Source of the DNA: Microbacterium sp. | GTDB lineage: Bacteria; Actinomycetota; Actinomycetes; Actinomycetales; Microbacteriaceae | Direction of reading: 5' to 3' | Assembly (NCBI GenBank): GCA_019510305.1 | Contig: JAEKKN010000028.1 | Location: 1-64,000 of the forward strand | Length of the DNA stretch: 64,000 nucleotides | Shown: positions 29,217 to 42,317 of the stretch, piece by piece | Position numbering within the stretch: the first letter of the stretch is position 1 | Layout of the letters: each line of letters opens with the position of its first letter | Translations under genes and position numbers: made by a program | Notes under the pieces: generated by a model | Seen by the model: the letters and a program-made list of their open reading frames with translations, nothing else | Database searches by the model: none | Told to the model about the DNA's origin: nothing

Positions 29217-30251
29217 TCAGCTGACGGCGGGCGGCGGAGCGGTGGATGCCCGCACGATGAGCTGAGGGTCGGTCGAGGGCATCTCGCCGATCGCCTCGTG
29301 GCCCTCGATCTGAGCGATCAGACGCAGGGCCGCTGCGCGACCCATGTCTTCGAAGGGCTGCCTGACCGTGGTGAGCGCAGGCGACGCGTAGGCCGCGAGA
29401 GCGATGTCGTCGACGCTCACGACCGAGACGTCCTCGGGCACGTTGCGGCCGGCTTCGTGGAGGGCGCGGATGAGGCCGAAGGCCATCTCGTCGCTGGACA
29501 CGAAGACCGCGGTGACCTCGGGGATGGCGGCGATCGTGCGGCCGGCGCGATAACCGGACTCGGGGGTCCAGTCGGCGGGAATCACCGGCGGGGGCACGAT
29601 GCCCCGGTCGCGCAGAGTCTGCTCCCACGCCTCGCTGCGCTGCTGCGTCTCCGTCCAGTAGTCGTCACCGGAGACGTGCCACACGGTCTTGTGTCCCAGA
29701 TCAAGGAGGTGCTCGACGGCCAGGCGCGCGATCGCATGTTGATCGACCGCGAGAGGGGCGTTGCCGTCGAGGGAGGTGCGCTCGCTGCGGGTGGCGGGGG
29801 TGCGCTCCATGCGCGCGCGCATCGCCGGCGTCTCGAGCTCGACGGGGATGCCGAGGATGATCCCCTCGGCGCCCTGACGCTCCAGCCGGTCGAAGGCGTC
29901 GAGGAACGCCTCAGCAGAGGCGTGGTCGGCGACTGCCGCGGTGGAGACCGTGTAGCCGTTGGCGGCGGCGGCCTGCTGGATGCCGACCCCGAGGGCCGCA
30001 GAGGAGTAGCGGTCGGTGGAGACCACGATCACGCCGAGCACACGGGTGCGTCCAGAGGCGAGAGAAGCCGCCGCCGCATGCACCCGGTAGCCGAGTTCGT
30101 CGACGGCGGCGAGCACCCGCCGGGCGGTGTCGGGGCGCACGCTGTCCTGTCCCGACATGACACGCGAGACGGTCTGCGTCGACACACCGGCCAGTTTGGC
30201 GACATCGACTTGGCTCGGGGAGCGATCGACCTGATGACGGCGAGGTGACAT
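29217..30251 (-). CDS. LacI-family repressor of the glycan locus
   Basis: 344 aa. N-terminal LacI helix-turn-helix (VDVAKLAGVSTQTVSRVMSG, hinge region LGYRVHAAAASLASGR), then a periplasmic-binding-like sugar domain (LGVIVV, FVSSDEMAFGLIRALHEAGRNVPEDVSVVSVDDIALAAYASP, LTTVRQPFEDMGR). It is divergent from the GH35 gene. Operators sharing TGTTTGCG lie before the GH35, GH101 and binding-protein genes and nowhere else that I found, so it most likely represses all three until a galactose- or GalNAc-containing sugar binds. TACCAT lies 6 nt before the ATG with no Shine-Dalgarno. Confidence 0.9.
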   Translation of the reverse strand: MSPRRHQVDRSPSQVDVAKLAGVSTQTVSRVMSGQDSVRPDTARRVLAAVDELGYRVHAAAASLASGRTRVLGVIVVSTDRYSSAALGVGIQQAAAANGYTVSTAAVADHASAEAFLDAFDRLERQGAEGIILGIPVELETPAMRARMERTPATRSERTSLDGNAPLAVDQHAIARLAVEHLLDLGHKTVWHVSGDDYWTETQQRSEAWEQTLRDRGIVPPPVIPADWTPESGYRAGRTIAAIPEVTAVFVSSDEMAFGLIRALHEAGRNVPEDVSVVSVDDIALAAYASPALTTVRQPFEDMGRAAALRLIAQIEGHEAIGEMPSTDPQLIVRASTAPPPAVS

Positions 30252-30257
30252 GGGTCA

Positions 30258-30263
30258 ATGGTA
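30258..30263 (-). promoter_or_regulatory. -10 element for leaderless lacI-type gene
   Basis: TACCAT on the minus strand, 6 nt before the ATG at 30251. Confidence 0.45.
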
Positions 30264-30313
30264 GCGATCAAATGGCGGAATCACAGTCACCCGGCGACGC
30301 GATCATGCGATAA

Positions 30314-30327
30314 TGTGAACGCAAACA
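30314..30327. promoter_or_regulatory. LacI-type operator before the GH35 gene
   Basis: TGTGAACGCAAACA; its reverse complement TGTTTGCGTTCACA occurs exactly at 42304-42317. It overlaps a likely -10 (TAATGT, 30311-30316) of the GH35 gene, so binding would block transcription. Confidence 0.75.
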
Positions 30328-30344
30328 CTCATGCTTGGAGCTTT

Positions 30345-32159
30345 ATGTCCGACCTTCTCGCCGCCGCTGTCGACGGCCTGACTGCGACCAGTGCCGTTCC
30401 GGCATCCGCGAACCGCCCCCCTCTCCCCGCCCTGTCCTGGCGCGACGGCGAGATCTTGCGCGATGGCGCTCCGCACCGCATCCTGGCCGGATCCGTGCAC
30501 TACTTCCGGGTGCACCCCGACCAGTGGGAGGACCGTCTGCGCCGCCTCGCCGCGACGGGCGCGAACACGGTCGACACCTATGTCGCCTGGAATTTCCACG
30601 AGCGTGTCGAAGGCGATGTGCGCTTCGACGGATGGCGCGACATCGAGCGCTTCGTACGCCTGGCCGGTGACCTCGGACTCGACGTGTTCGTGCGTCCGAG
30701 CCCGTACATCTGCGCCGAGTGGTCGAACGGCGGCATTCCGCACTGGCTCTCCGGCCGGGTGGAATCATTGCGAACGAGCGACCCGGCCTTTCTCGCGGCG
30801 GTCGATGCCTGGTACGACGAGCTCATTCCGCGACTCGTCCCGCTGCAGGCCGCGTACGGCGGGCCGATCGTGGCGGTGCAGGTCGAGAACGAATACGGAT
30901 CCTTCGGCAGCGATGCCGGCTATCTCGCGTACCTGCGCGACGGCCTGCGGTCGCGTGGCGTGATCGAGATGCTCACGACGGCCGACGGCATCACCGCCGA
31001 CATGATCGAGCACGGCTCGGTGGCCGGCGCCATGACGACCTTCACCTTCGGCACCGGAGTCGCCGCAGCCGTCGAGCTGCGGCGCGACCGCGAGGCGCTG
31101 ATGTGCAGCGAGCTGTGGGGAGGGTGGTTCGACCATTGGGGCGAGCGGCATCATGTCCGCTCCGCGTCCAGCATGGGCGGCACGGTCGGAGAGCTGCTGG
31201 ACGCCGGCGGGTCGGTGAGCGTGTACATGGCGCACGGCGGCACGAACTTCGGCCTGTGGAACGGCGCCAATCACGACCGCGTGCTCCAGCCCACCGTCAC
31301 CAGCTACGACTCCGACGCCCCGATCGGAGAGGACGGCACGCTGAACGACAAGTTCTACGCCTTGCGCGCCCTGTTCGCTCCGTTCCACGCAGGGGAGCTG
31401 CCCGCGATACCCGCGGCTCCGCGCCGTCAGGCGGCCGCATCGGCTCCGCTGTCTCCTGTGCGCCCGCTCCTCGAGCTCGTGCGCTCGCTGCCCGCGACAG
31501 GCGTCGCAACGCCGCGGCCGCAGACGTTCGAACAGCTGGGTGCGGAAGACGGCCTCGTCGCGTATGAGGCGCAGGTGTCGTTCGGGCGTGATGCCGAGCT
31601 GACGATCGACGGGCTGCACGACCGGGCGACGGTGCTCCTCGACGACGAACGACTGGGCACGCTCGAACGTGACGGCGTCACCTCGCTCGCCCTTCCGGCT
31701 ACGGGCGGCAGCGGTGTGCTCACGATCGTGGTGGAGAGCCTGGGGCGCATCAACTACGGTCCGTACACGGGTGAGGGCAAGGGCATCATGCGGGGCGTCA
31801 TGATCGGACGTCGCCTCGTGAACGGCTGGACACATCGCGTCGTGCCGCAGGACGTTCCGGATGCCGCCCCCGGTAGGCCTGCATCCGACGGCGTCGCTGT
31901 CGCGTCTCTTGACGTCGCGGAGCCGCTCGACGCCTGGCTCGCCTTCCCGGGCGGATCGAAGGGCATGGCCTGGCTGAACGGCTTCCTGCTGGGGCGCTAC
32001 TGGAAGGTGGGCCCCCAGGAGACCTTGTACGCCCCGGCGCCGTTGTGGCGTCAGGGGGCGAACGAGATCGTCGTGCTCGACACCGACGGTCTGGGCATGT
32101 CCGTCGAGATCCGCGAGCATCCGTCGTTCGGCGAGACCGAGGAGTTCATCGGATCCTGA
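30345..32159 (+). CDS. GH35 beta-galactosidase, cytoplasmic
   Basis: 604 aa. Starts the fold with LAGSVHYFRVHPDQWEDRL and TYVAWNFHE; the acid/base is the second Glu in VQVENEYGS (about E183) and the nucleophile is in CSELWGGWFDHWG (about E256). C-terminal beta-sandwich domains follow (WLAFPGGSKGMAWLNGFLLGRYW). No signal peptide, so it acts inside the cell. GH35 enzymes of the BgaC type cleave beta-1,3-linked galactose, which would suit Gal-beta-1,3-GalNAc released by the neighbouring GH101; linkage specificity is inferred from context. The ATG at 30345 follows GGAG. Controlled by the operator at 30314. Confidence 0.92.
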   Translation: MSDLLAAAVDGLTATSAVPASANRPPLPALSWRDGEILRDGAPHRILAGSVHYFRVHPDQWEDRLRRLAATGANTVDTYVAWNFHERVEGDVRFDGWRDIERFVRLAGDLGLDVFVRPSPYICAEWSNGGIPHWLSGRVESLRTSDPAFLAAVDAWYDELIPRLVPLQAAYGGPIVAVQVENEYGSFGSDAGYLAYLRDGLRSRGVIEMLTTADGITADMIEHGSVAGAMTTFTFGTGVAAAVELRRDREALMCSELWGGWFDHWGERHHVRSASSMGGTVGELLDAGGSVSVYMAHGGTNFGLWNGANHDRVLQPTVTSYDSDAPIGEDGTLNDKFYALRALFAPFHAGELPAIPAAPRRQAAASAPLSPVRPLLELVRSLPATGVATPRPQTFEQLGAEDGLVAYEAQVSFGRDAELTIDGLHDRATVLLDDERLGTLERDGVTSLALPATGGSGVLTIVVESLGRINYGPYTGEGKGIMRGVMIGRRLVNGWTHRVVPQDVPDAAPGRPASDGVAVASLDVAEPLDAWLAFPGGSKGMAWLNGFLLGRYWKVGPQETLYAPAPLWRQGANEIVVLDTDGLGMSVEIREHPSFGETEEFIGS

Positions 32160-32174
32160 CCCGGCTGCGCCCCC

Positions 32175-32209
32175 ACAGGCCGCCCTGCCTCGAGAGCAGG
32201 GCGGCCTGT
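32175..32209 (+). terminator. strong hairpin after the GH35 gene
   Basis: ACAGGCCGCCCTGC (32175-32188) and GCAGGGCGGCCTGT (32196-32209) form a perfect 14-bp stem with a 7-nt loop, 16 bp after the stop. It separates GH35 from GH101 transcription. Confidence 0.75.
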
Positions 32210-32240
32210 CGTGTTCCTGCTCGAGGATTCAGGATCCAGA

Positions 32241-32254
32241 ATGTTTGCGCTAGC
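32241..32254. promoter_or_regulatory. LacI-type operator 1 before the GH101 gene
   Basis: ATGTTTGCGCTAGC carries the TGTTTGCG half-site; the other half is degenerate. Lies about 134 bp before the GH101 start. Confidence 0.6.
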
Positions 32255-32269
32255 TAGGAAATTGCCCTT

Positions 32270-32281
32270 GATATTCACGGG
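32270..32281 (+). promoter_or_regulatory. shared box GATATTCACGGG
   Basis: GATATTCACGGG is found again at 42470-42481 upstream of the binding-protein gene. It lies between the two LacI-type operators. Its role is unknown; part of a promoter or a second regulator site is possible. Confidence 0.35.
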
Positions 32282-32297
32282 GAATGTCCCATATGTT

Positions 32298-32311
32298 GAT
32301 TGCGCAAACAT
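32298..32311. promoter_or_regulatory. LacI-type operator 2 before the GH101 gene
   Basis: GATTGCGCAAACAT contains the inverted half-site CGCAAACA. With operator 1 it could allow looping over 57 bp or tighter repression. Confidence 0.65.
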
Positions 32312-32387
32312 CGTGCGAACGATGACTTCAGCCAGGGCGCATCGGAGCGACTCCCTCTCCGAGCACCTGCCCGTCCGAGAGGCAATC

Positions 32388-35300
32388 GTGTCGAATCCAT
32401 CCCGACCTCCCCGCGCGACACGCATCGTCAGCACGCTGCTGACGTCCGTGCTCGTGCTCGGCGGCGTCGCCCTGCAAGTCGTGCCCGCGCAGGCGGCCGC
32501 GTTGATCCCCGTGCCCAAGACCGACTACCGACTGGCGGCGGTGTCGAGCGAGTCCGATGCCTACCCGGCACCACCGGCCCTCGACGGCACCGCGCTCGGC
32601 GCCTTCGACGGCGACTATGCGACCCAGTGGGTCTCGCGCTACACCGTGCCGGCACCTGCGCCGCACTGGCTCTCGATCGACCTGCAGCGTCCGATCTCGA
32701 TCAAGGCGCTCGACTACTCGGGCAAGAAGGGTCAGCGCATCGACGCCAAGAACGTCGAGGTCTACGTGACCGATGATGCGGCGGTGGCGACGGCCTCGCC
32801 GAAGGACGGCGGGTGGGGAGCGGCCGTGGGGACGGCTGCCCTGCACGCTCCGGCCGCCAACGACGAGAAGCAGCGCATCGAGCTCGCCACGGCGAAGACC
32901 GGGCGATACGTCGCTCTCGTCGTGCTCGACGCCCAGGACCCCGCGGGCAAGGGCGGCGGCGCCGGCGAGATCGAGATCTTCTCGGACCAGGCGCTTCCCC
33001 CGATCACCACCGACCCGGGCAACCCGCCGGCCGGCGACACCGTGCAGATCGCCGCCGGCGGCACCACGGCGACAGTCTCGAAGACCTTCCCGCAGATCGT
33101 GGGCTACGACATCGACGGCACGACCATCGGGGGTCAGCGTGCATCGAGCGGCAAGTGGGCCGTGAACGGCACCTCTTACGCGTCCCAGACCACGTCGGCG
33201 CCCTCGGCCTCCGGCATCGACTACGTCTCACGACTGACGGGGATCGACGTCACAGTGCGCAGCAGCATCCGCGTCGCGGGCGACGGAACCGTCGCCTTCG
33301 AGGTGACCGCCGTCGAGGGATCGGCGCCCGTCAACACCCTCGGGCTGCCCGACAACGCCTTCCTCTCGACGAGTTCGGCAGACCCGGGATCGACGCTCGA
33401 CCGCACCGTGATCAGCCCTGACAGCACGAAGAACGCCGACGAGCACATCGCGCTGAACGGCACGACCCCGACCGGGCAGAAGGGCGCATCGTTCGCGTTC
33501 CTCGGCAACGGCGAGGTCATCGGCGGCGTGATCACGAACGCCACCACGCAGGCCTCAGGCGCAACACCATCGTGGAACACCAGGCTGCTCACGCGAGTCA
33601 CCGAGGTCGACGGCCGCACGGCAGAGATCGCGTCGAACAGCTGGCTCATCCACCCGACGACCGCGGTCGACAGCCGAGTCACCACGTACGAGCTGCCGAA
33701 GGTCACCGTGCTGTTCGCCGGCGACCGCAATGGCGACGATGTCGTGGACTGGCAGGATGCCGGCATCCGCTACCGCGAGATCGACGCACCTCGTCTCGGC
33801 GCGGACCGAGTCCCGGAGCGCGTCGTCAGCCGCATCCCGTTCAACTTCGCCTCCAGTGCGACGAACTACTTCGACCTGACCCTCGACAACACCAAGCGCA
33901 TCGCCAACCAGACCGACGGCCTGGGCCAGTGGGTGCTCAACAAAGGCTTCGGCAGCGAGGGCCACGACTCGGCCAACACCGACTACGGCGACAACTTCAA
34001 CGAGCGGGCGGGTGGGGTCGCCGGCCTCAACCACCTCGTCGACGAAGGCGGCAAGCTCAACGCCGACATGAGCGTGCACGTCAACGCCACCGAGATGTAC
34101 CCGCAGGCGAACGCCTTCGACTCGGCGATCATCGACGGCGCCGCCCCCTACAAACCGGGGTGGAACTGGCTCGATCAGTCGTACTACATCAACCAGCAGG
34201 CCGACCTCGGTTCCGGCCGGGTGATCGACCGTTTCCAGGAGCTGCGCGACGAGGTCCCTGGCCTCAGCGGCGTGTACATCGACGTGTACTTCTCCAACGG
34301 CTGGGTCGCCGAAGAGCTCGCAGACGAGCTGCACGGAATGGGCCTCGAGGTCGCGACCGAGTGGGGTGACAAGTTCGTCGACAACACGGTCTGGTCGCAC
34401 TGGCCGAACGATCTCAGCTACGGCGGGGTGACGAACAAGGGCATCAACTCGACGATGGTGCGCTTCATCCAGAACGGCCAGGCCGACATCTGGAACAACG
34501 ACCCGCTCCTCGGCCAGCAGCGACTGATCGACGCCGAGGGCTGGCAGGGCAACAAGAACTGGGACGGCTTCATCGACAACATCTGGTCTCAGAGCCTGCC
34601 GACGAAGTTCATCCAGCACTTCGATCTGCTCAGCTACAAGGCCGGGCAGAGCGCGACGCTCACCGACGACGTGAAGATCTCCATGGACGGCAGCACGCGC
34701 GTCATCACGATGGGCGGCGACACAGTGCTCCGGGGCGATTCGTACCTGCTGCCGTGGCAGAGCCTCGACTCGCACGCGGATGCGGGATCCCCGGTGGATG
34801 CCGACAAGATGTACTTCTACTCCGCCTCTGGCGGCGAGAAGACCTTCGGCCTCACCGACGCCTTCAGCGGCAACACCGGGTTCGACGTCTTCCGGCTGGG
34901 TGACCAGGGCCGGCAGAAGACCGGTACCGTGAACGCGGCCGACGGAAAGCTCACGATCACAGGAGAGAAGGGCGCCGCCTATGTCGTCGTTCCTCAAGGC
35001 GGGGCGCAGCGCGCCGCGGCCGAGTATCACGACGCCGGACTCGACGACCCCGGCTTCAACTCCGGTTCGCTCGACGTGTGGCATCCGATCGGAGACGTGA
35101 CGCTCGCGCGCACGGACGAGGGCACGGCCAAGAACGCCTCGCGAGGCGACAACATCGTCGTGCTCGGATCGCCCGCGTCGTCGATCAGCCAGACGGTCAC
35201 CGGTCTCACGCCGGGGCAGCGCTACTCGTTCTCGGCACAGGTGCAGATCGACCCCACGACCACACGCGACGTCATGGTCGCCGTGGACGGCGGAGCCGGA

Positions 35301-37589
35301 GCCGTGCAGCGCACGTGGAGCCTCTCGCCGACGACCAACTACATGAGAGCGGACTCGAAGTCCGGACAGCACTACCAGCGCGGCGCCGTCTCGTTCCTCG
35401 CTCCGGCATCCGGCCAGGTGACCGTCTCGGTCGCGGCTGCCGCCGGCGACGCGAAGGTCCGCGTCGACAACGCCCGAGTCATGGTCGACACCACCGCTCC
35501 TGCGGCGGCGGGCGCCGTGTACTCGAACGACTTCGAGGGCGATCAGGCCGGCTGGGGTCCGTTCGTGAAGGGTGACGCCGGCGGCATCGAGGACCCCCGC
35601 ACGAGCATCTCGCGTCGTCACGAGCCGTACACGAGCAGCGAGTGGCGCAACACGGCTTCACCGTTCGCTCCTGGCGGCGCGCTGGCCGGTCTTGCGGTCG
35701 ATTCGACGTTGAACGGCGAGCACTCGCTGCTGTCGCACTCCGAGAACAACGGTCTCGTCTATCGCACCGACCCGACGCTCGTGCCCCTGCAAGCCGGGCA
35801 CACCTACCGCATCGGCTTCGACTACCAGGCCGGAGCGAGCGGGTCCTACCGATGGCTCACGGGCACGGACGCCGTCACGGGAGGCGAGGTCGCCTCGACC
35901 ACGCTCAGCCGTACGCCGATCGAGCAGGCGCTGGAGACCGCGGCGTTCAGCCAGGACGTGATCGTCGGATGCGGCGACTACACCTGGGTCGGACTCGAGC
36001 GCACCGGCGGGGCCGACGTCGACTTCGTCCTCGACGACTTCACGGTCGCCGATCTCGGGCCGACTTCCGGCGGAACGCCGTGCGCGACGGTGTCGGGTGG
36101 AACCGCGGTGCTGAACCCCGGAGCCCAGGCGACGTTCACGACGACCTTCACGAACAGCGAGGAGCTCACCGCCGAGAACATCGGCGTGCAGCTCGAGCTG
36201 CCCGAAGGATATGCGGTCGAGGTCGCGGACGGCTCGTCGAACCTGTTCGACTCGGTCGCGCCGGGCGAGAGCGTCGACACGACCTGGCTGGTCACGGCCC
36301 CGGCTGCCGCCGCGGGCGGGGCCGTCGGAATCGGAGTCTCGGCGACCTATCTCGTAGGGTGCGACGTGCGCACGGTGTCGACCGTGCAGCAGACCTCGGT
36401 CGCGGCGCGCGCCCGCATTCCGAATGCGCAGATCACGGCGTCCGCCAGCTCTGAGGAGACAGAGGGGGAGGACGGCCAGGCCGCCAACATGCTCGACGGC
36501 GAGGCCGGCACCTTCTGGCACAGCCGTTGGAGCGAGGACGCCACCTCGTATCCGCACGTCGTGACCTTCGATCTCGGCAGCGCGGAGCAGGTCGACGGCA
36601 TCTCGTACCTGCGCCGCGGAGCCAACCAGAACGGCCCGATCAAGGGCTATCAGGTGGCGGTGTCAACCGACGGGCAGACGTACGCCGACGTGGTCTCCGG
36701 CGAGTGGAACAACGTCGCAGGCTGGCAGGACGTGGACTTCGCCTCGGTCTCGGCGCGGTACGTCAGGGTCACCGCGACCTCGTCGATCTCGGGCACGCAG
36801 TTCGCGGCGATCGCGGAGATGGCGATCTACGGCACGCCCGCGCCGAAGGACGGTCATGCCCCGAAGGCGCGTCCGGCCGACGACCTGGGCGAGTGCACCC
36901 CCGCGACCGACCCGGCGCTCGCTCTCGACGCCGATTCGGTGCGGGCGGGAGAGACGGTCGGGGCCGCCCTGACCGGCTTCGCCCCGTCCTCGACCGTGTC
37001 GTTCTGGCTCGACGGCGTGAAGATCGCGGATGCCGCGGTCGACGCCGACGGAGCGCTCAGCACGCCGCTGCTCATCCCGGCGGATGCCGAGATCGGCACG
37101 CACCGCGTCATCGTGAAGGACGGCTCAGGAGCCGAGCTCGCGAGCGCGGAGCTGAAGGTCAAGAAGGCCAAGCCGGCCAAGGACCCGAGGATCACCCCGT
37201 CGGTCGGGACGGTGCGCTCCGGCGGCACGCTGACCGTGCAGCTGGGCGGATTCGAGCCCGGTCAGCTCGTGCAGCTGTGGCTGCACTCCGAGCCAGTCAA
37301 GGTCGGCGAGGCGACGGTGTCCGATGACGGCGAGGCGGTGCTGTCGATCACGGTTCCCGCCTCGACCCCGGCGGGCGCCCACACGCTCGTCGCGACGGAT
37401 GCCGAGGGCGTCGAACTCGCATCGGCCGGGCTGGCGGTCACGGCCGCGCCCGGTGCGGGCACGGGCTCCGGAGCGGATCTCGCCACGACGGGAGCCGATG
37501 GTTCGCTGTGGTCGGCCGTGGCGGCGTCCGCTCTGGGTCTGCTGGCCCTCGGTGCGGTGCTGTGGACGAGGCGGCGTCGGATGAGCTGA
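32388..37589 (+). CDS. GH101 endo-alpha-N-acetylgalactosaminidase, secreted
   Basis: 1733 aa. Signal peptide (about 1-37, ending VPAQAAA), an N-terminal discoidin-like domain (about 50-140), then the GH101 catalytic region. The family pair is visible: nucleophile Asp in GVYIDVYFSNGW (about D632) and acid/base Glu in VATEWGDK (about E658); DVVDWQDAGIRYRDI-like DWQDAGIRYREI precedes them. A NEW3-like domain, a C-terminal F5/8 discoidin domain (about 1344-1490) and Ig-like repeats follow. The end is a sorting signal: LATTG (1698-1702), a hydrophobic helix and RRRR, fitting a class E sortase substrate. It should release core-1 Gal-beta-1,3-GalNAc from Ser/Thr O-glycans at the cell surface. The GTG at 32388 has GAGAGG 5 nt upstream, which decides the start. 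Confidence 0.9.
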   Translation: MSNPSRPPRATRIVSTLLTSVLVLGGVALQVVPAQAAALIPVPKTDYRLAAVSSESDAYPAPPALDGTALGAFDGDYATQWVSRYTVPAPAPHWLSIDLQRPISIKALDYSGKKGQRIDAKNVEVYVTDDAAVATASPKDGGWGAAVGTAALHAPAANDEKQRIELATAKTGRYVALVVLDAQDPAGKGGGAGEIEIFSDQALPPITTDPGNPPAGDTVQIAAGGTTATVSKTFPQIVGYDIDGTTIGGQRASSGKWAVNGTSYASQTTSAPSASGIDYVSRLTGIDVTVRSSIRVAGDGTVAFEVTAVEGSAPVNTLGLPDNAFLSTSSADPGSTLDRTVISPDSTKNADEHIALNGTTPTGQKGASFAFLGNGEVIGGVITNATTQASGATPSWNTRLLTRVTEVDGRTAEIASNSWLIHPTTAVDSRVTTYELPKVTVLFAGDRNGDDVVDWQDAGIRYREIDAPRLGADRVPERVVSRIPFNFASSATNYFDLTLDNTKRIANQTDGLGQWVLNKGFGSEGHDSANTDYGDNFNERAGGVAGLNHLVDEGGKLNADMSVHVNATEMYPQANAFDSAIIDGAAPYKPGWNWLDQSYYINQQADLGSGRVIDRFQELRDEVPGLSGVYIDVYFSNGWVAEELADELHGMGLEVATEWGDKFVDNTVWSHWPNDLSYGGVTNKGINSTMVRFIQNGQADIWNNDPLLGQQRLIDAEGWQGNKNWDGFIDNIWSQSLPTKFIQHFDLLSYKAGQSATLTDDVKISMDGSTRVITMGGDTVLRGDSYLLPWQSLDSHADAGSPVDADKMYFYSASGGEKTFGLTDAFSGNTGFDVFRLGDQGRQKTGTVNAADGKLTITGEKGAAYVVVPQGGAQRAAAEYHDAGLDDPGFNSGSLDVWHPIGDVTLARTDEGTAKNASRGDNIVVLGSPASSISQTVTGLTPGQRYSFSAQVQIDPTTTRDVMVAVDGGAGAVQRTWSLSPTTNYMRADSKSGQHYQRGAVSFLAPASGQVTVSVAAAAGDAKVRVDNARVMVDTTAPAAAGAVYSNDFEGDQAGWGPFVKGDAGGIEDPRTSISRRHEPYTSSEWRNTASPFAPGGALAGLAVDSTLNGEHSLLSHSENNGLVYRTDPTLVPLQAGHTYRIGFDYQAGASGSYRWLTGTDAVTGGEVASTTLSRTPIEQALETAAFSQDVIVGCGDYTWVGLERTGGADVDFVLDDFTVADLGPTSGGTPCATVSGGTAVLNPGAQATFTTTFTNSEELTAENIGVQLELPEGYAVEVADGSSNLFDSVAPGESVDTTWLVTAPAAAAGGAVGIGVSATYLVGCDVRTVSTVQQTSVAARARIPNAQITASASSEETEGEDGQAANMLDGEAGTFWHSRWSEDATSYPHVVTFDLGSAEQVDGISYLRRGANQNGPIKGYQVAVSTDGQTYADVVSGEWNNVAGWQDVDFASVSARYVRVTATSSISGTQFAAIAEMAIYGTPAPKDGHAPKARPADDLGECTPATDPALALDADSVRAGETVGAALTGFAPSSTVSFWLDGVKIADAAVDADGALSTPLLIPADAEIGTHRVIVKDGSGAELASAELKVKKAKPAKDPRITPSVGTVRSGGTLTVQLGGFEPGQLVQLWLHSEPVKVGEATVSDDGEAVLSITVPASTPAGAHTLVATDAEGVELASAGLAVTAAPGAGTGSGADLATTGADGSLWSAVAASALGLLALGAVLWTRRRRMS

Positions 37590-37603
37590 CCCGCAGATCC
37601 GCA

Positions 37604-37647
37604 GCACGACGCGGCCCGGAGGATGATTCCTCCGGGCCGCGTCGTGC
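37604..37647. terminator. 20-bp perfect hairpin after the GH101 gene
   Basis: Perfect 20-bp arms at 37604-37623 and 37628-37647 with a TGAT loop. It starts 14 bp after the GH101 stop and lies before the convergent erm gene, so it can serve both. Confidence 0.8.
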
Positions 37648-37741
37648 AGGGTCCGGCGTCCACGCGATCGCGGATCGGAGACGTCGCCGAGGACGGCGCG
37701 CGGACGCGTTTCCGATCCGCCGCTCCGCGCCGGGGAGGCGA

Positions 37742-38509
37742 TCATCGTGCGCCGCGCACCGCCGCCCACAGCGAGGCCCAGTGCATTGCGGTCAGGTCGC
37801 GGGGCAGTGCGCGCGGCGGCGCCTCCGCCGCGGCGAGGGCGTGCCGAACGGTCGCGGCTCTCGTCGGCGCGATCCGCCTGACGATGCTCTCGACGCCGGC
37901 GCCGCGCCCGGTGAACACGTCACGGACGAACCTCTCGTACGCGCGTCTCTCGGCGTGCGGCACGAGGGGCGATCCGCGTCGGGTGATCGTGAGGATGCCG
38001 CCGTCGACGCCGGGCCGGGGCGCGAAACCCCAGCTGGGCACCCGCCCCCGCAGGGAGAACTCGAACCACGGTGCGCTCTGCGCCGTCATCATCGTCCCGC
38101 CTCCGACGCCGGCGCGCTTGCGGGCGACCTCCCACTGGGTGACGAGCACGGCGTGATCCCACCGGCGCTCCGAGAGCAGGCGCCGCAGGATCGGCGTCGT
38201 GAGGTGGAATGGCACGTTGCCGACGACGACGGGCGCGTCGAGCGGATGCCGCAGCGCATCGGCGTGCATGACGCGCACGTGCGGGAGGGCGCGTGCGAGG
38301 CGCCGCACCCGGTGCTCGTCGAGGTCGATCGCCGTGAGCGGCCGGCGGGTCGACGCGAGGTGGCGCGTGAGGGCGCCGTCACCAGCCCCGAGTTCGAGGA
38401 TGGGCCCGGTGGTCGCGTCGACGAGGGCGATGACGGCGTCGATGGTTGGTCGGTGGACGAGGAAGTTCTGGCCGAGTTCATGGCGGCCGCCGTGAAGGGA
38501 ACGAGGCAT
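37742..38509 (-). CDS. erm: Erm-family 23S rRNA (adenine-N6) methyltransferase
   Basis: 255 aa. Belongs to the RsmA/Erm fold: GRHELGQNFLVH (GQNFL at 13-17), SAM motif I ILELGAGDGALTRHL (38-51), acidic loop AIDLDEHR, and the catalytic N-x-P-F motif VGNVPFHLTTPIL (N98-F101). The N-terminal RHELGQNFL and the lack of RsmA C-terminal features favour Erm, which methylates A2058 of 23S rRNA and blocks macrolides, lincosamides and streptogramin B; function is predicted only. The ATG at 38509 has GGAG 7 nt upstream, but that site sits in a hairpin (38514-38540), and a 26-codon reading frame lies further upstream, as in inducible erm genes. It is placed inside the glycan locus without an obvious link. 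Confidence 0.85.
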   Translation of the reverse strand: MPRSLHGGRHELGQNFLVHRPTIDAVIALVDATTGPILELGAGDGALTRHLASTRRPLTAIDLDEHRVRRLARALPHVRVMHADALRHPLDAPVVVGNVPFHLTTPILRRLLSERRWDHAVLVTQWEVARKRAGVGGGTMMTAQSAPWFEFSLRGRVPSWGFAPRPGVDGGILTITRRGSPLVPHAERRAYERFVRDVFTGRGAGVESIVRRIAPTRAATVRHALAAAEAPPRALPRDLTAMHWASLWAAVRGAR

Positions 38510-38513
38510 GGGA

Positions 38514-38540
38514 GCGCTCCAAGGAAAGGTTCTGGAGCAC
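38514..38540 (-). promoter_or_regulatory. hairpin covering the erm ribosome binding site
   Basis: On the minus strand GTGCTCCA pairs with TGGAGCGC (one G-U pair), 8 bp with an 11-nt loop. The 3' arm contains the GGAG Shine-Dalgarno of erm. Such sequestration is the hallmark of translational attenuation in erm genes; the inducing event here is not known. Confidence 0.5.
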
Positions 38541-38616
38541 CGCGGAGAGGCCGGGTCGCGGGTATGCGGAAGCGCCCGTCCGAGGTGCGTGATGACGTCT
38601 CGGAGGGACGGCGCAC

Positions 38617-38697
38617 TCAATCGAGCGGATGCGAGCGCGCCGTCAGGCGCGGCGGTCGCGGAAAGTGAAGAAGCGCCCCGTCACGGGCGCAGAGCAT
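38617..38697 (-). CDS. possible erm leader peptide, 26 aa
   Basis: A 26-codon frame (begins MLCARDGALLHF, rich in Arg/Pro) ends 107 nt before the erm start. An AT-rich hexamer (CAATAT or TATGCT) lies at its start, so the start codon would be at or near a transcription start. Leader peptides are common before inducible erm genes, but I see no known stalling motif. Confidence 0.3.
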   Translation of the reverse strand: MLCARDGALLHFPRPPRLTARSHPLD

Positions 38698-38788
38698 ATT
38701 GTTCCCACAGCCCGACTCTAACAGGAGCCGGTTGCCGCGGCATCCGCCCTGTCGGGGAGGGGAACTCACGCCCGCGAGGAGACGCTGC

Positions 38789-38863
38789 TTCGGGAGGAGT
38801 TCTCACGCTCGGGAGGAGGATTCCGCGTGGCGGGTCCTCCCGAACGCGCTTTCTCCTCCCGAA
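38789..38863. repeat. cgggaggag direct and inverted copies upstream of erm
   Basis: TTCGGGAGGAG (38789-38799) has an exact inverted copy CTCCTCCCGAA (38853-38863); CGGGAGGAG (38810) and TCCTCCCGAA (38835) lie between them. This is in the 222-bp gap between the leader frame and the ABC permease. Function unknown. Confidence 0.4.
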
Positions 38864-38867
38864 CCGT

Positions 38868-38902
38868 CGTGGCGGGGATGAGGGGAGGGTCTCCCCGCCA
38901 CG
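38868..38902 (-). terminator. hairpin after the sugar ABC operon
   Basis: CGTGGCGGGGA (38868-38878) pairs with TCCCCGCCACG (38892-38902), loop 13 nt, 18 bp beyond the stop of the distal permease gene. Confidence 0.6.
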
Positions 38903-38919
38903 CGTGTGGGGAGAGTGTC

Positions 38920-39840
38920 TCAGCCCTTCACGGCGCCGGCCGCGAGGCCGGAGCGCCAATACCTCTGCAGGGTGAAGAACAGGATGATCAGCGGGATGAC
39001 GCCGAGCAGAGCGCCGAGCATGACAGCGCCCTTGTCGGGGGAGAAGTAACTCATCATGCCGTACAGGCCGAGGGTGACCGGCTTGAGATCCGCGCTGGAG
39101 ATCATCATGAGCGGCAGCAGGAAGTTGTTCCACGTCGCCACGAAGATGAACAGGAAGATCGTCACCATCGCCGGTCCCAGCAGACGCAGGACGATCGTGA
39201 AGAAGATCCGTGCCTCACCCGCGCCGTCGATTCGTGCGGCCTCCAGCAGCTCGGTCGGCACCGACGACTGCGCGTAGACCATGCCGAGGAAAACGCCGAA
39301 GGGCGAGACAGCCGAGGGGATGATGATCGCCCAGGCGGTGTTCGTGAGGCCGAGCGAGTGGAACTCGATGTACAGCGGAACTGTCAGCAGCGCGACCGGC
39401 AGCAGGAGCCCTGCCATGATCACGCCGACAGCGATCCTCTTCCCCGGGAACGCGAACTTCGCGATCGCGTAGCCGGCCATCACGGCGAACAGGGTGCCGA
39501 TGACCCCGGCGCTCACCGAGTAGAACAACGAGTTCCCCACCCAGCGCCAGAACAGCCCCTGCGTCCAGCCCATCAGGCTGTCGTAGTTCGCGCCGAGATT
39601 TCCGTCGGCGAACCAGAAGCCGAAGGTCGAGGTGAGATCGGTGTTGCTCTTGGTGGACGCCACGACGAGCCAGTACACGGGGACGAGGAAGTACAGCGTC
39701 GCGATGATGAGAGCGATGATTCCGAAGGTGCGCGCGACGGGACCGGGCGCGATCGACGGGGGCGGAGCATCCGCCGCCTGCGGCTTGCGGGATCGGCGAG
39801 CGGATGCCGGGGGGACGGTGACGAGTCGTGTGGTGGTCAT
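38920..39840 (-). CDS. CUT1 sugar ABC permease, MalG type
   Basis: 306 aa, six helices. The EAA coupling loop reads EAARIDGAGEARIFFTIVLRLLGPA. The N-terminus is a long Pro/Ala cytoplasmic extension. It overlaps the MalF-type gene by 4 bp (ATGA). Together with that permease and the lipoprotein it forms the importer assigned here to the glycan system. No ATPase gene is in the window, so a shared MsiK-type ATPase encoded elsewhere is presumed. Confidence 0.92.
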   Translation of the reverse strand: MTTTRLVTVPPASARRSRKPQAADAPPPSIAPGPVARTFGIIALIIATLYFLVPVYWLVVASTKSNTDLTSTFGFWFADGNLGANYDSLMGWTQGLFWRWVGNSLFYSVSAGVIGTLFAVMAGYAIAKFAFPGKRIAVGVIMAGLLLPVALLTVPLYIEFHSLGLTNTAWAIIIPSAVSPFGVFLGMVYAQSSVPTELLEAARIDGAGEARIFFTIVLRLLGPAMVTIFLFIFVATWNNFLLPLMMISSADLKPVTLGLYGMMSYFSPDKGAVMLGALLGVIPLIILFFTLQRYWRSGLAAGAVKG

Positions 39841-40808
39841 GCGTCACCCTTTCGGCGCTGCAGGAGTGCGTAGCCGATCGCGAGGACGCCCGCGATCAGG
39901 GCCATGAGGAGGGAGTAGGCGGAGGCGGGACCGCTGCCTGACGGCGAGATCTCGCCCATCATCGAGTTGTAGGTGAGCATCATCGGAGTGAAGTCCTTGC
40001 CCATCCACGAGTTCGCGGCCTCCATGATCACCGGCTCGTTGAACAGCTGGATCGTGCCGATGATCGACAGCAGCACGGCCAGCAGAGCGGCTCCGCGCAC
40101 GAGCGGGACCTTGATGCGCATCGCGACCTGGACGCCGGACGCGCCGTCGAGACGCGCCGCCTCGTACAGATCGCGCGGCACGGCCTGCAGCGCCGACAGG
40201 AAGATCAGCATGTTGTAGCCGGTGTAGGTCCAGGTCGTCATGTTCGCCATCGAGAACAGGATCGTCTGCGGCGACATCAGGTCGGTGCCCTCGGGGAGGA
40301 ACGGGAGGAACGGCGAGACCTGAGGCGTGTAGAGGTAGAGCCACATCATCGCGGCGATGACGCCCGGGACGGCGTAGGGGAGGAAGAACGAGAGGCGGAA
40401 CAGCGCGGGTCGACGGACGATGAACGAGTCCAGGAGCAGAGCGAGAGCGAGGGCGCCGATGATCATGAACGGGATCTGGATCGCCGCGAAGAGGACGACC
40501 CGGCCCATCCCGGCCCAGAAGGCGCCGTTCGTGGCCGCCATCACGAGGTTGTCGAAGCCGACGAAGGCGTCGACCAGTTCGCCGCCGCCGTAGAGGCCGT
40601 CGCCTGACGGCACCTGCGCGAAGAACGCCGAGCGCACGGACACGATGATCGGCACGAGGAACACGACGACGAAGAGCACCGCGAACGGCAGCATGAACAG
40701 CCAGCCGGTGAGTCCTTCGCGTCGGATGCCCGTGCCGCGGCGTCTCTTGGCGGGCTGGTGTGGGGCCGGGGTCTTCGGGGTGACCCGGCTGTCGGTCACG
40801 GTGACCAT
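39837..40808 (-). CDS. CUT1 sugar ABC permease, MalF type
   Basis: 323 aa. N-terminal basic region (AKRRRGTGIRREGLTGWLF), six to seven helices and the EAA loop EAARLDGASGVQVAMRIKVPLVRGA. The ATG at 40808 follows GAGAGG. It lies 88 bp after the binding-protein gene, with a large hairpin in between that would keep permease levels below those of the binding protein. Confidence 0.92.
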   Translation of the reverse strand: MVTVTDSRVTPKTPAPHQPAKRRRGTGIRREGLTGWLFMLPFAVLFVVVFLVPIIVSVRSAFFAQVPSGDGLYGGGELVDAFVGFDNLVMAATNGAFWAGMGRVVLFAAIQIPFMIIGALALALLLDSFIVRRPALFRLSFFLPYAVPGVIAAMMWLYLYTPQVSPFLPFLPEGTDLMSPQTILFSMANMTTWTYTGYNMLIFLSALQAVPRDLYEAARLDGASGVQVAMRIKVPLVRGAALLAVLLSIIGTIQLFNEPVIMEAANSWMGKDFTPMMLTYNSMMGEISPSGSGPASAYSLLMALIAGVLAIGYALLQRRKGDA

Positions 40809-40830
40809 GCGTGCGCCTCTCGTTTCATGA

Positions 40831-40869
40831 CGACGGCGGAGTGCACTTCGTGGTTGCACTCCGCCGTCG
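40831..40869 (-). terminator. intra-operon hairpin between receptor and permease genes
   Basis: CGACGGCGGAGTGCA (40831-40845) and TGCACTCCGCCGTCG (40855-40869) form a perfect 15-bp stem with a 9-nt loop. In CUT1 operons such hairpins stabilise the receptor mRNA or partly terminate; either is inferred here. Confidence 0.6.
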
Positions 40870-40896
40870 ATCATCAGATGATGCCTTGCCCGACGG

Positions 40897-42204
40897 TCAT
40901 TCCGCGACGGGAAGGCCGAGATCCTTCAGAGAGGAGACGGCCGTCTCCTGTGCGGTGGTGAAGATGTCGGCGACCTTCGCGGTGCCGGCGACAGCGGCTG
41001 CCGCGGTCTCGTTCATCGTGGACAGCGTCGAGAACCCGGGAGCGTAGGGGAAGTCGGGGTTCAGGTTCTCGGTCGCGGTGGCGAGCTCGGCGAGGACGTC
41101 CTGTCCGCCGAACTGGCGCAGCATCTTGTCAGGGGTCTTCACGCTGCCCTTGGCGGCGACCACGAGGCCCTGCGACGCGAGGTCGTCGACCTGGGTGTTG
41201 AGCCACGCGTTGAACTCCATGGCCTCGGCGGGGTGCTCGCAGCCCTTCATGACGGATACGCCGGAACCACCGTCCGGGCCGCTGAGGGCGCCCGCGCCGA
41301 AGTCCGGAAGCTGCGCGACCCGCCACTGGCCTTCGGCAGGGGTGCCGTCGAGCGAGTCGAGGAGGAAGCCGGCTTCCCACGCCGCGCCGACGTGTCCGAT
41401 GAGGCTGCCGTCGTTGAGCGCGGCCGTGAAGCCCTCGCCCCAGCGTTCGGTCGCTAGGGTCTGCTTGCTGTCGAGCAGGCCCTGCCAGAACGCGGCGACC
41501 CGCTGGGAGCCCGCGCCCTCGGCGTCGACCTTCCACTCGTCGCCGGCGGTCGAGAACCAGGTGTCGCCGGCGGCCGCCGACTGGCCGGCGAGCCAGTTCG
41601 TCGCCTCGTCCGGCGTGAAGGCGGTGACGTATTTGCCCGCGGCGGATGCGACGGCGGAGTCGCCGGTCAGGTCGTCCAGGGTCTTCGGGGCCTCCAAGCC
41701 GAGGGCCGTGAACGCGGTCTCGTTGTAGAAGTACACGAGGGGGCCGGTGTCCTGCGGGAGCCCGACGATCGCGTCGCCGACCTTCATGCCGCTGAAAGCG
41801 CCGGCCGAGAAGTCGTCTTCGTACTTCTTCGCCTCATCCGCGACATCCTGCAGCAGACCCTTGACGTAGAGCTGCGGGACTTCGGCATATCCGGTCTGCG
41901 CAAGGCACGGGCCGTTGCCCGCCTTGATGTCGGTCTCGAGCTTGAGGATCATGTCGCTCGACTTGCCGTCGAACTTCGTCGCCGTGACCTGGATGTCGGG
42001 GTGCTCGTCGTTCCACCGCGCGACGACGTCGTCGATCTTGGTCATGCCGTCGCCATCGGGAAGGCGGTGCACATACTCGATCGTGACCGGCTCGCCGGAA
42101 GTGTCTTCGCCGCTGTCGCCGGACGAGCAGGCGGCGAGGCCGAAGGCCGACACGGCGCCGACCGCGACGATGGCGGCGGTGCGGGTGAAGCGGGTGGTTG
42201 CCAT
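40897..42204 (-). CDS. sugar-binding lipoprotein of the CUT1 importer
   Basis: 435 aa. Lipobox LAAC after a short signal peptide (FTRTAAIVAVGAVSAFGLAAC), then family-1 solute-binding protein features (VVARWNDEHPDIQVTATKFDG, GLPQDTGPLVYFYNETAF). It would capture the released disaccharide outside the membrane. The ATG at 42204 follows AGAGGAG. Regulated by the operator at 42304, identical to the one before GH35. Ligand is inferred from the shared regulation, not from its own sequence. Confidence 0.9.
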   Translation of the reverse strand: MATTRFTRTAAIVAVGAVSAFGLAACSSGDSGEDTSGEPVTIEYVHRLPDGDGMTKIDDVVARWNDEHPDIQVTATKFDGKSSDMILKLETDIKAGNGPCLAQTGYAEVPQLYVKGLLQDVADEAKKYEDDFSAGAFSGMKVGDAIVGLPQDTGPLVYFYNETAFTALGLEAPKTLDDLTGDSAVASAAGKYVTAFTPDEATNWLAGQSAAAGDTWFSTAGDEWKVDAEGAGSQRVAAFWQGLLDSKQTLATERWGEGFTAALNDGSLIGHVGAAWEAGFLLDSLDGTPAEGQWRVAQLPDFGAGALSGPDGGSGVSVMKGCEHPAEAMEFNAWLNTQVDDLASQGLVVAAKGSVKTPDKMLRQFGGQDVLAELATATENLNPDFPYAPGFSTLSTMNETAAAAVAGTAKVADIFTTAQETAVSSLKDLGLPVAE

Positions 42205-42303
42205 GCTGTTCTCCTCTTTGAGGTCATGTTCCTGCAGATCCCCCCAGGGCGGGGGCCCGACACCGCGTGCGGCGTCGATCGCTCTGCACATCAAATCAGA
42301 AAA

Positions 42304-42317
42304 TGTTTGCGTTCACA
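42304..42317. promoter_or_regulatory. LacI-type operator before the binding-protein gene
   Basis: TGTTTGCGTTCACA, the exact reverse complement of the GH35 operator and in the same orientation relative to its gene, 100 bp before the start codon. The gap 42205-42587 holds no gene; it also contains GATATTCACGGG at 42470-42481. Confidence 0.75.

What the first reader, a model, noticed from the sequence alone, without database searches (positions are those of the whole stretch)
29217..42317. Candidate core-1 O-glycan (Gal-beta-1,3-GalNAc) utilisation regulon in an environmental-type actinobacterium
Secreted, sortase-signal GH101; CUT1 receptor and two permeases; cytoplasmic GH35; LacI repressor. 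GH101 enzymes release Gal-beta-1,3-GalNAc, and some GH35 enzymes cleave beta-1,3-galactosides, so the pieces make a full capture-import-cleavage route. It differs from the Bifidobacterium route, which uses a GH112 phosphorylase; none is seen here. Missing in the window: ATPase, GalNAc kinase/deacetylase, and sortase. The enzymes are recognised from motifs; the pathway is inference from neighbourhood and shared operators.
Basis: partly seen in the sequence, partly recalled or inferred. Interest (0 to 1): 0.75.

Follow-up and report, generated by a model that had tools for sequence, protein, structure and literature searches.

The report
Mucin-sugar uptake regulon in Microbacterium
A Microbacterium genome carries, between shared repressor-type DNA sites, genes for a predicted surface enzyme that would strip the Gal-GalNAc disaccharide from animal O-glycoproteins, a relative of the Bifidobacterium receptor for that disaccharide, and a predicted internal galactosidase that would likely cut it in place of the phosphorylase found beside the Bifidobacterium importer.

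Summary
LacI, GH35, GH101, two CUT1 permeases and a lipoprotein receptor lie at 29217-42317. [quoted passage not shown] next family 97). The GH35's best solved match is 4mad (recalled as Bacillus circulans beta-1,3-galactosidase BgaC). The operator TGTGAACGCAAACA occurs exactly twice in the 3.98 Mb genome, both here. In 22 related loci 57 of 58 operator cores fall in the promoters of these genes, with a paired site of constant 55-56 bp spacing before GH101. GH112 phosphorylase was not found in the genome, with positive controls. Of 62 actinobacterial loci with this receptor, 20 have GH35, 19 have GH112, none both. A class E sortase is elsewhere in the genome. Not shown: activity, binding, repression and the fate of GalNAc (AgaS not found; a NagA homologue below cut-off; no operator at either). 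I call it a third wiring of core-1 O-glycan use: endo-GalNAcase, GL-BP-type ABC import, GH35 hydrolysis; a new variant built of known parts.

The parts
29217..30251 (-). LacI-family regulator, likely the repressor of the set
   Evidence: LacI HTH and Peripla_BP_3 domains; divergent from GH35 with an operator between them
30314..30327 (+). Operator TGTGAACGCAAACA between lacI and GH35
   Evidence: exact, one of two copies in the genome; an equivalent site in 12 of 12 related loci with this region in view
30345..32159 (+). GH35 beta-galactosidase, BgaC-like, predicted cytoplasmic
   Evidence: Pfam; best solved match 4mad, 477 bits; ENEYG and SELWGGW kept
32242..32254 (-). Distal operator half-site before GH101
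   Evidence: centre 55 bp from the next site
32298..32310 (+). Proximal operator half-site before GH101
   Evidence: paired sites 55-56 bp apart in 11 of 12 related loci with this promoter in view
32388..37589 (+). GH101 endo-alpha-N-acetylgalactosaminidase, predicted secreted and sortase-anchored
   Evidence: Pfam; 2zxq E 1.4e-115, 3ecq E 5.7e-113
37479..37586 (+). C-terminal sorting signal of GH101: LATTG, hydrophobic stretch, RRRR
   Evidence: LAxTG in 11 of 13 Microbacteriaceae relatives listed there, LSETG in L035, none in the short frame of L028
38920..39840 (-). CUT1 permease (MalG type)
   Evidence: BPD_transp_1
39837..40874 (-). CUT1 permease (MalF type); true start may lie further in
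   Evidence: BPD_transp_1
40897..42204 (-). Lipoprotein receptor of the GL-BP family
   Evidence: 2z8d 437 bits; lipobox-like LAAC; Arg47 invariant in 61 of 61
42304..42317 (-). Operator TGTGAACGCAAACA before the receptor gene
   Evidence: exact; an equivalent site in 21 of 22 related loci

Best explanation
This is a local LacI-type regulon predicted to feed a Microbacterium cell on core-1 O-glycans: a GH101 enzyme likely held on the cell wall would release Gal-beta-1,3-GalNAc, a receptor of the Bifidobacterium GL-BP family with two permeases would import it, and a BgaC-like GH35 would likely hydrolyse it inside to galactose and GalNAc. Gene content, families, operator sites and the failure to find GH112 are shown by sequence; secretion, anchoring, substrate, cleavage and repression are inferred. 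In the expected working the repressor sits on one site between lacI and GH35, one site before the receptor gene and two sites 55 bp apart before GH101 (possibly bound together), and leaves when the disaccharide or a product is present. An ATPase encoded elsewhere would drive import (not searched). The galactose would enter the Leloir route (not tested). The fate of GalNAc is open.
For: Receptor: GL-BP 2z8d at 437 bits, next family 97; Arg47, aligned with the Arg49 that a review ties to GL-BP's second-position sugar, invariant in 61 of 61. GH101: whole catalytic part aligns with EngBF and SpGH101. GH35: best solved match 4mad, 477 bits, human GLB1 382; Trp in SELWGGW where GLB1 has Tyr, in 17 of 17 relatives with the segment in view, of 20. 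Regulon: exact operator twice in the genome, both here; 57 of 58 cores in the promoters of these genes in 22 loci; 37 of 43 sites in 14 relatives' genomes inside the cluster. GH112 not found here nor in 7 relatives, found in 3 of 3 controls; GH35 and GH112 never together in 62 loci. GH101 and receptor co-occur in 198 genomes of the genus (13 both, 9 and 10 alone, 166 neither). Class E sortase in the genome.
Against: Six related loci have receptor, permeases, GH35 and lacI without GH101, so the module can work without it. 9 of 22 GH101 genomes lack this receptor and 10 of 23 receptor genomes lack GH101. G423 has GH101, GH35 and lacI without the transporter. No GalNAc gene with the operator was found; AgaS not found; NagA homologue below cut-off. 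L040 and L050 have the receptor and permeases without GH35 or lacI in view, and L040 without the operator. The Trp of GH35 is shared with Bacteroides enzymes 3d3a and 6eon, so it does not fix the substrate.
Confidence: 0.72

Rival explanations
1. The import-and-cleavage module serves GNB and LNB ends from any source, released by other organisms or other enzymes, and GH101 is a later add-on that supplies only one of several substrates.
For: Six loci without GH101 keep the same receptor, permeases, GH35, lacI and operators; 10 of 23 receptor genomes lack GH101; GL-BP takes LNB as well as GNB (PMC12345172). In the receptor tree the GH101 rows are nested among GH35-only rows (90/85, not a starred fork).
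Against: In the window's group GH101 stands inside the cluster and carries two of the operators.
Confidence: 0.17
2. The cluster serves plant arabinogalactan: the receptor and GH35 handle beta-1,3-galactobiose, and GH101 is a chance neighbour.
For: GH35 shares the Trp with the Bacteroides enzymes 3d3a and 6eon; I recall that 6eon comes from an arabinogalactan pathway. A soil or plant habitat would fit (unknown here).
Against: The receptor's full-strength match is GL-BP alone; GH101 carries the operators.
Confidence: 0.07
3. The genes are neighbours without a common function or control.
For: Genomes exist with only GH101 (9 of 22) or only the receptor (10 of 23). An Erm-like gene stands inside the cluster here. 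The motif is not above chance inside the window alone.
Against: 57 of 58 operator cores lie in these promoters over 22 loci; in 11 of 14 relatives' genomes the searched operator pattern occurs only in the cluster.
Confidence: 0.03

Closest known systems
Bifidobacterium GNB/LNB pathway (GH101 EngBF, GL-BP ABC importer, GH112 phosphorylase, NahK, GalT, GalE)
   Same: GH101 plus a receptor and two permeases of the same families
   Different: No GH112 found; a GH35 and a LacI gene stand in its place; NahK and GalT, present in 4 of 4 Bifidobacterium loci with GH112, are not in this cluster
Lactobacillus casei gnb operon (PTS, GH35 GnbG, GnbE, GnbF; PMC6109692, passages)
   Same: A GH35 with beta-1,3 preference cuts GNB/LNB inside the cell
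   Different: There import is by a PTS and the likely substrate is phosphorylated; deaminase and deacetylase lie in the operon. Here an ABC importer, and neither gene in the cluster
Streptococcus aga regulon (bgaC, gadVWEF PTS, agaS under AgaR; PMC4694137, passages)
   Same: BgaC-type GH35 beside a sugar importer and a repressor
   Different: PTS instead of ABC; AgaR instead of LacI; agaS in the regulon
Arthrobacter echini locus L042
   Same: GH101 directly beside the GL-BP-type importer
   Different: Has GH112, and no GH35 or operator core in view

Membership tests
GH101 endo-alpha-N-acetylgalactosaminidase | Catalytic domain of the family over its full length | tested here: met
   PF12905 360 bits, positions 1-272 of 272; genome search E 2.1e-109
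GH101 endo-alpha-N-acetylgalactosaminidase | Catalytic Asp and Glu (residue roles recalled, not from a call) | tested here: met
   YIDVY and TEWG align with YVDVW and IEWG of 3ecq
[quoted passage not shown]
   needs an assay
GL-BP (GNB/LNB receptor) | Closest solved structure is GL-BP by a wide margin | tested here: met
   2z8d 437 bits, 7vfr 455, next family 97
GL-BP (GNB/LNB receptor) | Arg49 of the sugar site | tested here: met
   aligned Arg47, 61 of 61 rows; number matched by offset only, no coordinates seen
GL-BP (GNB/LNB receptor) | Tight binding of GNB and LNB | not testable with these tools
   needs ITC or SPR
GH35 BgaC-type beta-1,3-galactosidase | GH35 domain with catalytic Glu pair | tested here: met
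   PF01301 335 bits; ENEYG and SELW aligned with 4mad; E233 of BgaC as nucleophile from PMC9027921
GH35 BgaC-type beta-1,3-galactosidase | Beta-1,3 preference | tested here: inconclusive
   Trp shared with 4mad and not with GLB1, but also with 3d3a and 6eon
Bifidobacterium GNB/LNB pathway | GH112 phosphorylase | tested here: not met
   no match in the genome; positive in 3 of 3 control genomes
Lactobacillus/Streptococcus PTS route | PTS importer and AgaS-type deaminase with the GH35 | tested here: not met
   ABC genes in the cluster; AgaS not found in the genome
LacI-controlled regulon | Shared operator at each promoter of the set | tested here: met
LacI-controlled regulon | Repressor binds the operator and releases it with an inducer | not testable with these tools
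   needs gel shift or footprint
Sortase-anchored surface enzyme | Sorting signal plus a sortase in the genome | tested here: met
   LATTG tail; one sortase, class E, 226 bits against a cut-off of 160. That class E takes LAxTG signals is recalled

The most novel reading that the evidence does not exclude
A third, undescribed wiring of core-1 O-glycan use, outside the classic gut specialists: endo-GalNAcase on the cell wall, GL-BP-type ABC import and hydrolytic GH35 in place of the phosphorylase. GH101 was captured into an older GNB/LNB-scavenging regulon of Microbacteriaceae behind a promoter with two phased operators, and GL-BP-type importers were paired with GH35 or with GH112 in different actinobacterial lineages as exclusive alternatives.
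Probability: 0.6. Interest if true: 0.6.

Novelty: new variant of a known kind. Interest (0 to 1): 0.5.

Why it matters
In the papers I saw, core-1 O-glycan use is described for gut and host-associated bacteria that use a phosphorylase or a PTS. Here the same task appears to be done in Microbacterium with an ABC importer and a plain hydrolase, which gives up the energy saved by phosphorolysis and leaves free GalNAc as the open problem. It gives a concrete set to test: a receptor with a predicted ligand, a GH35 with a predicted natural substrate, and an operator that marks the set across genomes. It also shows GH35 and GH112 as alternative partners of one importer family, an evolutionary swap that can be traced.

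Tried and rejected
(1) One widespread regulon with GalNAc genes: not supported. The exact operator has no further copy in this genome; the two extra hits of the looser pattern (C21, C78) and the one-mismatch hits were not examined for their genes. In 3 of 14 relatives extra sites exist: near a GH35/GH36/ABC operon (L139), at an alpha-galactosidase-like gene (L141), and beside genes that I did not annotate (L140, L142). (2) The Erm-like methyltransferase as part of the system: rejected; of 62 related loci only L021 gave a hit. (3) The NagA homologue at C60 as a dedicated GalNAc gene: not supported; it stands beside a GH20 gene, has no CGCAAACA core in the 14 kb around it, and NagA-like hits are in all 20 genomes tested, with or without the cluster. 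(4) The motif test inside the window alone was not significant. (5) AgaS hits in 11 of 20 genomes are weak (up to 32 bits, none over the cut-off of 529; none in this genome). (6) The GH112 scan of the genus found 0 of 198 but rang in no control, so it was repeated with known carriers. (7) Structure prediction and fold search were not run. (9) The same-species genome G572 showed no GH101 and no receptor at the thresholds used; the site itself was not looked at. (10) Papers: the listings showed no paper on this combination by title or abstract start; of the two that joined Microbacterium with the enzyme (one and the same, PMC9120202) I saw passages, which count Microbacterium among genera and describe no pathway there.
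Full report
WHAT IS THERE. The window is the first 64 kb of contig C7 of a 3.98 Mb genome (86 contigs, 99.97% complete). The genus is Microbacterium by inference: the receptor gene of Microbacterium sp. CBA3102 (L028) has the coordinates that one search gives for G592, listed there as same genus. The interval 29217-42317 holds lacI (-), GH35 (+), GH101 (+), an Erm-like methyltransferase (-), two CUT1 permeases (-) and a lipoprotein receptor (-). I prefer starts at 30345 for GH35, 32388 for GH101 and 42204 for the receptor, because the mechanical ORFs would swallow operators or miss the signal peptides. GH101 begins with a signal-peptide-like stretch and ends with LATTG, a hydrophobic stretch and RRRR; GH35 has no comparable N-terminal stretch. 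GH101 is rare in the phylum sample: 5 of 396 genomes over the cut-off, this one included.

THE RECEPTOR POINTS TO THE CARGO. Among all solved structures the receptor matches three sequences at full strength: 2z8d, named GNB/LNB transporter substrate-binding protein (437 bits), and 7vfr and 7vfq (455 and 452 bits; named only as solute-binding protein, recalled as Bifidobacterium); then it falls to 97 bits for 6q5g and 6h0h. GL-BP of B. longum takes LNB and binds GNB 8.5-fold better (PMC12345172, passages and section 6). A review links Arg49 of GL-BP to GlcNAc in the second position (PMC8106489, passages); the aligned Arg47 here is invariant in 61 of 61 rows (60 of the 62 fetched loci plus the window; the two short rows L081 and L082 were dropped). 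The residue number fits by offset only; I had no coordinates.

THE TWO ENZYMES. GH101 aligns over its catalytic part with EngBF (2zxq, E 1.4e-115) and pneumococcal SpGH101 (3ecq, E 5.7e-113), and the Asp and Glu that I recall as the catalytic pair, and GWNWLDQ, are kept. GH35 matches 4mad best (477 bits), ahead of human GLB1 (382) and 4e8c (365); that 4mad is Bacillus circulans BgaC and 4e8c pneumococcal BgaC is recalled. BgaC makes, and hydrolyses, Gal-beta-1,3-GalNAc linked to a spacer (PMC7329766, passages); its nucleophile is Glu233 (PMC9027921, passages). The motif SELWGGW carries Trp where GLB1 has Tyr, as in 17 of 17 related GH35s with that segment in view (20 GH35 loci, 3 cut short). 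The chains 3d3a and 6eon share the Trp, so GH35 alone does not fix the aglycon.

THE REGULON. TGTGAACGCAAACA occurs exactly twice in the genome: between lacI and GH35, and before the receptor gene. GNNNNCGCAAACA, derived from the cluster, occurs 6 times, 4 of them here, the reversed control 0 times. In 22 loci of Microbacteriaceae (L021-L041 and L050; L041 is labelled only Actinomycetales) the core CGCAAACA occurs 58 times, 57 of them inside promoter windows of the four genes, which make up 2.8% of the DNA (the loci are related, so the binomial P printed there overstates the case). By promoter: before the receptor gene in 21 of 22 loci (not in L040); between GH35 and lacI in 12 of 12 loci with that region in view; before GH101 in 12 of 12 in view, with two sites in 11 (one in L031). 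The two GH101 sites are 55 bp apart centre to centre here and 55 or 56 bp apart in those 11. In 14 relatives' genomes a related pattern gave 43 distinct sites, 37 in the cluster; the 6 others are in G398 (2), G408 (3) and G409 (1). The window has one more core at about 43,328 inside an open frame.

HYDROLASE WHERE OTHERS HAVE THE PHOSPHORYLASE. From the receptor I fetched 62 loci in named genomes (found through two peptide patterns, so not exhaustive). GH35 (over 45% identity) is in 20, GH112 (over 35%) in 19, both in none; two more loci (L054, L070) have a distant GH35 (29-30%) and no GH112. The others have neither in view, some at contig ends. GH112 loci: 10 Actinomycetaceae, 4 Propionibacteriaceae, 4 Bifidobacterium (all 4 with NahK and GalT) and Arthrobacter echini; GH35 loci: 17 Microbacteriaceae, 2 Nocardiopsis and 1 Propionibacteriaceae. 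GH112 was not found in this genome or in 7 relatives tested and rings in 3 of 3 controls; a genus scan found 0 of 198 but had no positive control. In the receptor tree the rows with GH101 in Microbacteriaceae form a group (support 90/85, below the starred level; L024, inside it, is cut off before GH101 could be seen) next to rows with GH35 only, which suggests that GH101 joined an older module.

WHAT SPEAKS AGAINST, AND GAPS. Six loci have receptor, permeases, GH35 and lacI without GH101 (L032, L036-L039, L041). L040 and L050 have no GH35 or lacI in view. Of 198 genomes of the genus, 22 have GH101 and 23 this receptor (E up to 1e-100); 13 have both, 9 only GH101, 10 only the receptor, 166 neither (Fisher P 5e-9, kinship not corrected). 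GH101 in the genus is of more than one kind: the copy in G477 is 39% and that in G449 62% identical to this one, outside such a cluster. G423 has GH101, GH35 and lacI without the ABC genes nearby. A same-species genome (G572) showed neither GH101 nor receptor. AgaS was not found in this genome; a NagA homologue at C60 scores 203 bits, below the cut-off of 225.65, and stands beside a GH20 gene without an operator core nearby. ATPase, galactokinase and amino-sugar kinase were not searched. A class E sortase is at C61.

COMPARISON WITH WHAT IS KNOWN. Bifidobacterium: GH101, GL-BP importer, GH112. Lactobacillus casei: PTS, GH35 GnbG, GnbE, GnbF (PMC6109692, passages). Streptococcus: bgaC with a PTS and agaS under AgaR (PMC4694137, passages). 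The present set takes the release and import parts of the Bifidobacterium route and the cleavage type of the other two. In the open-licence library I found no description of it (listings); most subscription papers are not held, so this is weak evidence of novelty.

VERDICT. I rate it a new variant of a known kind, interest 0.5.

Noticed in passing
window 37742-38620 (-): Erm-like 23S rRNA methyltransferase (237 bits against a cut-off of 212 for the broad Erm model) between GH101 and the permeases; of 62 related loci only L021 (98% identical) gave a hit.
   Followed up: partly
G572 (whole genome): A genome listed as the same species shows neither GH101 nor this receptor, so the cluster may vary between strains.
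   Followed up: no
L152 (G423:C3:141000-157000): The same site holds GH101, GH35 and lacI without the receptor and permease genes.
   Followed up: partly
L139 (G408:C1:753000-772500): A second ABC, GH35 and GH36 gene group with three operator-like sites, possibly under a related repressor.
   Followed up: partly
L141 5973-10559 (G398): An alpha-galactosidase-like protein (Melibiase_2) with F5/8 C domains, beside what look by eye like lacI and ABC genes, with one operator-like site at the start of its frame.
   Followed up: no
L042 1021-12000: Arthrobacter echini: GH112, receptor, two permeases and GH101 in one direction, a phosphorylase version of the same set.
   Followed up: partly
L028 15596-18920 (-): The GH101 frame of Microbacterium sp. 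CBA3102 reads shorter than in relatives and lacks the sorting tail.
   Followed up: no
P0002: A receptor 94% identical to this one is filed under Streptomyces sp. AC495_CC817; perhaps a mislabelled or mixed record.
   Followed up: no
L151 6053-8731 (G000:C60): A NagA homologue next to a GH20 gene in the window's own genome; a possible entry for amino sugars, not under this operator.
   Followed up: partly
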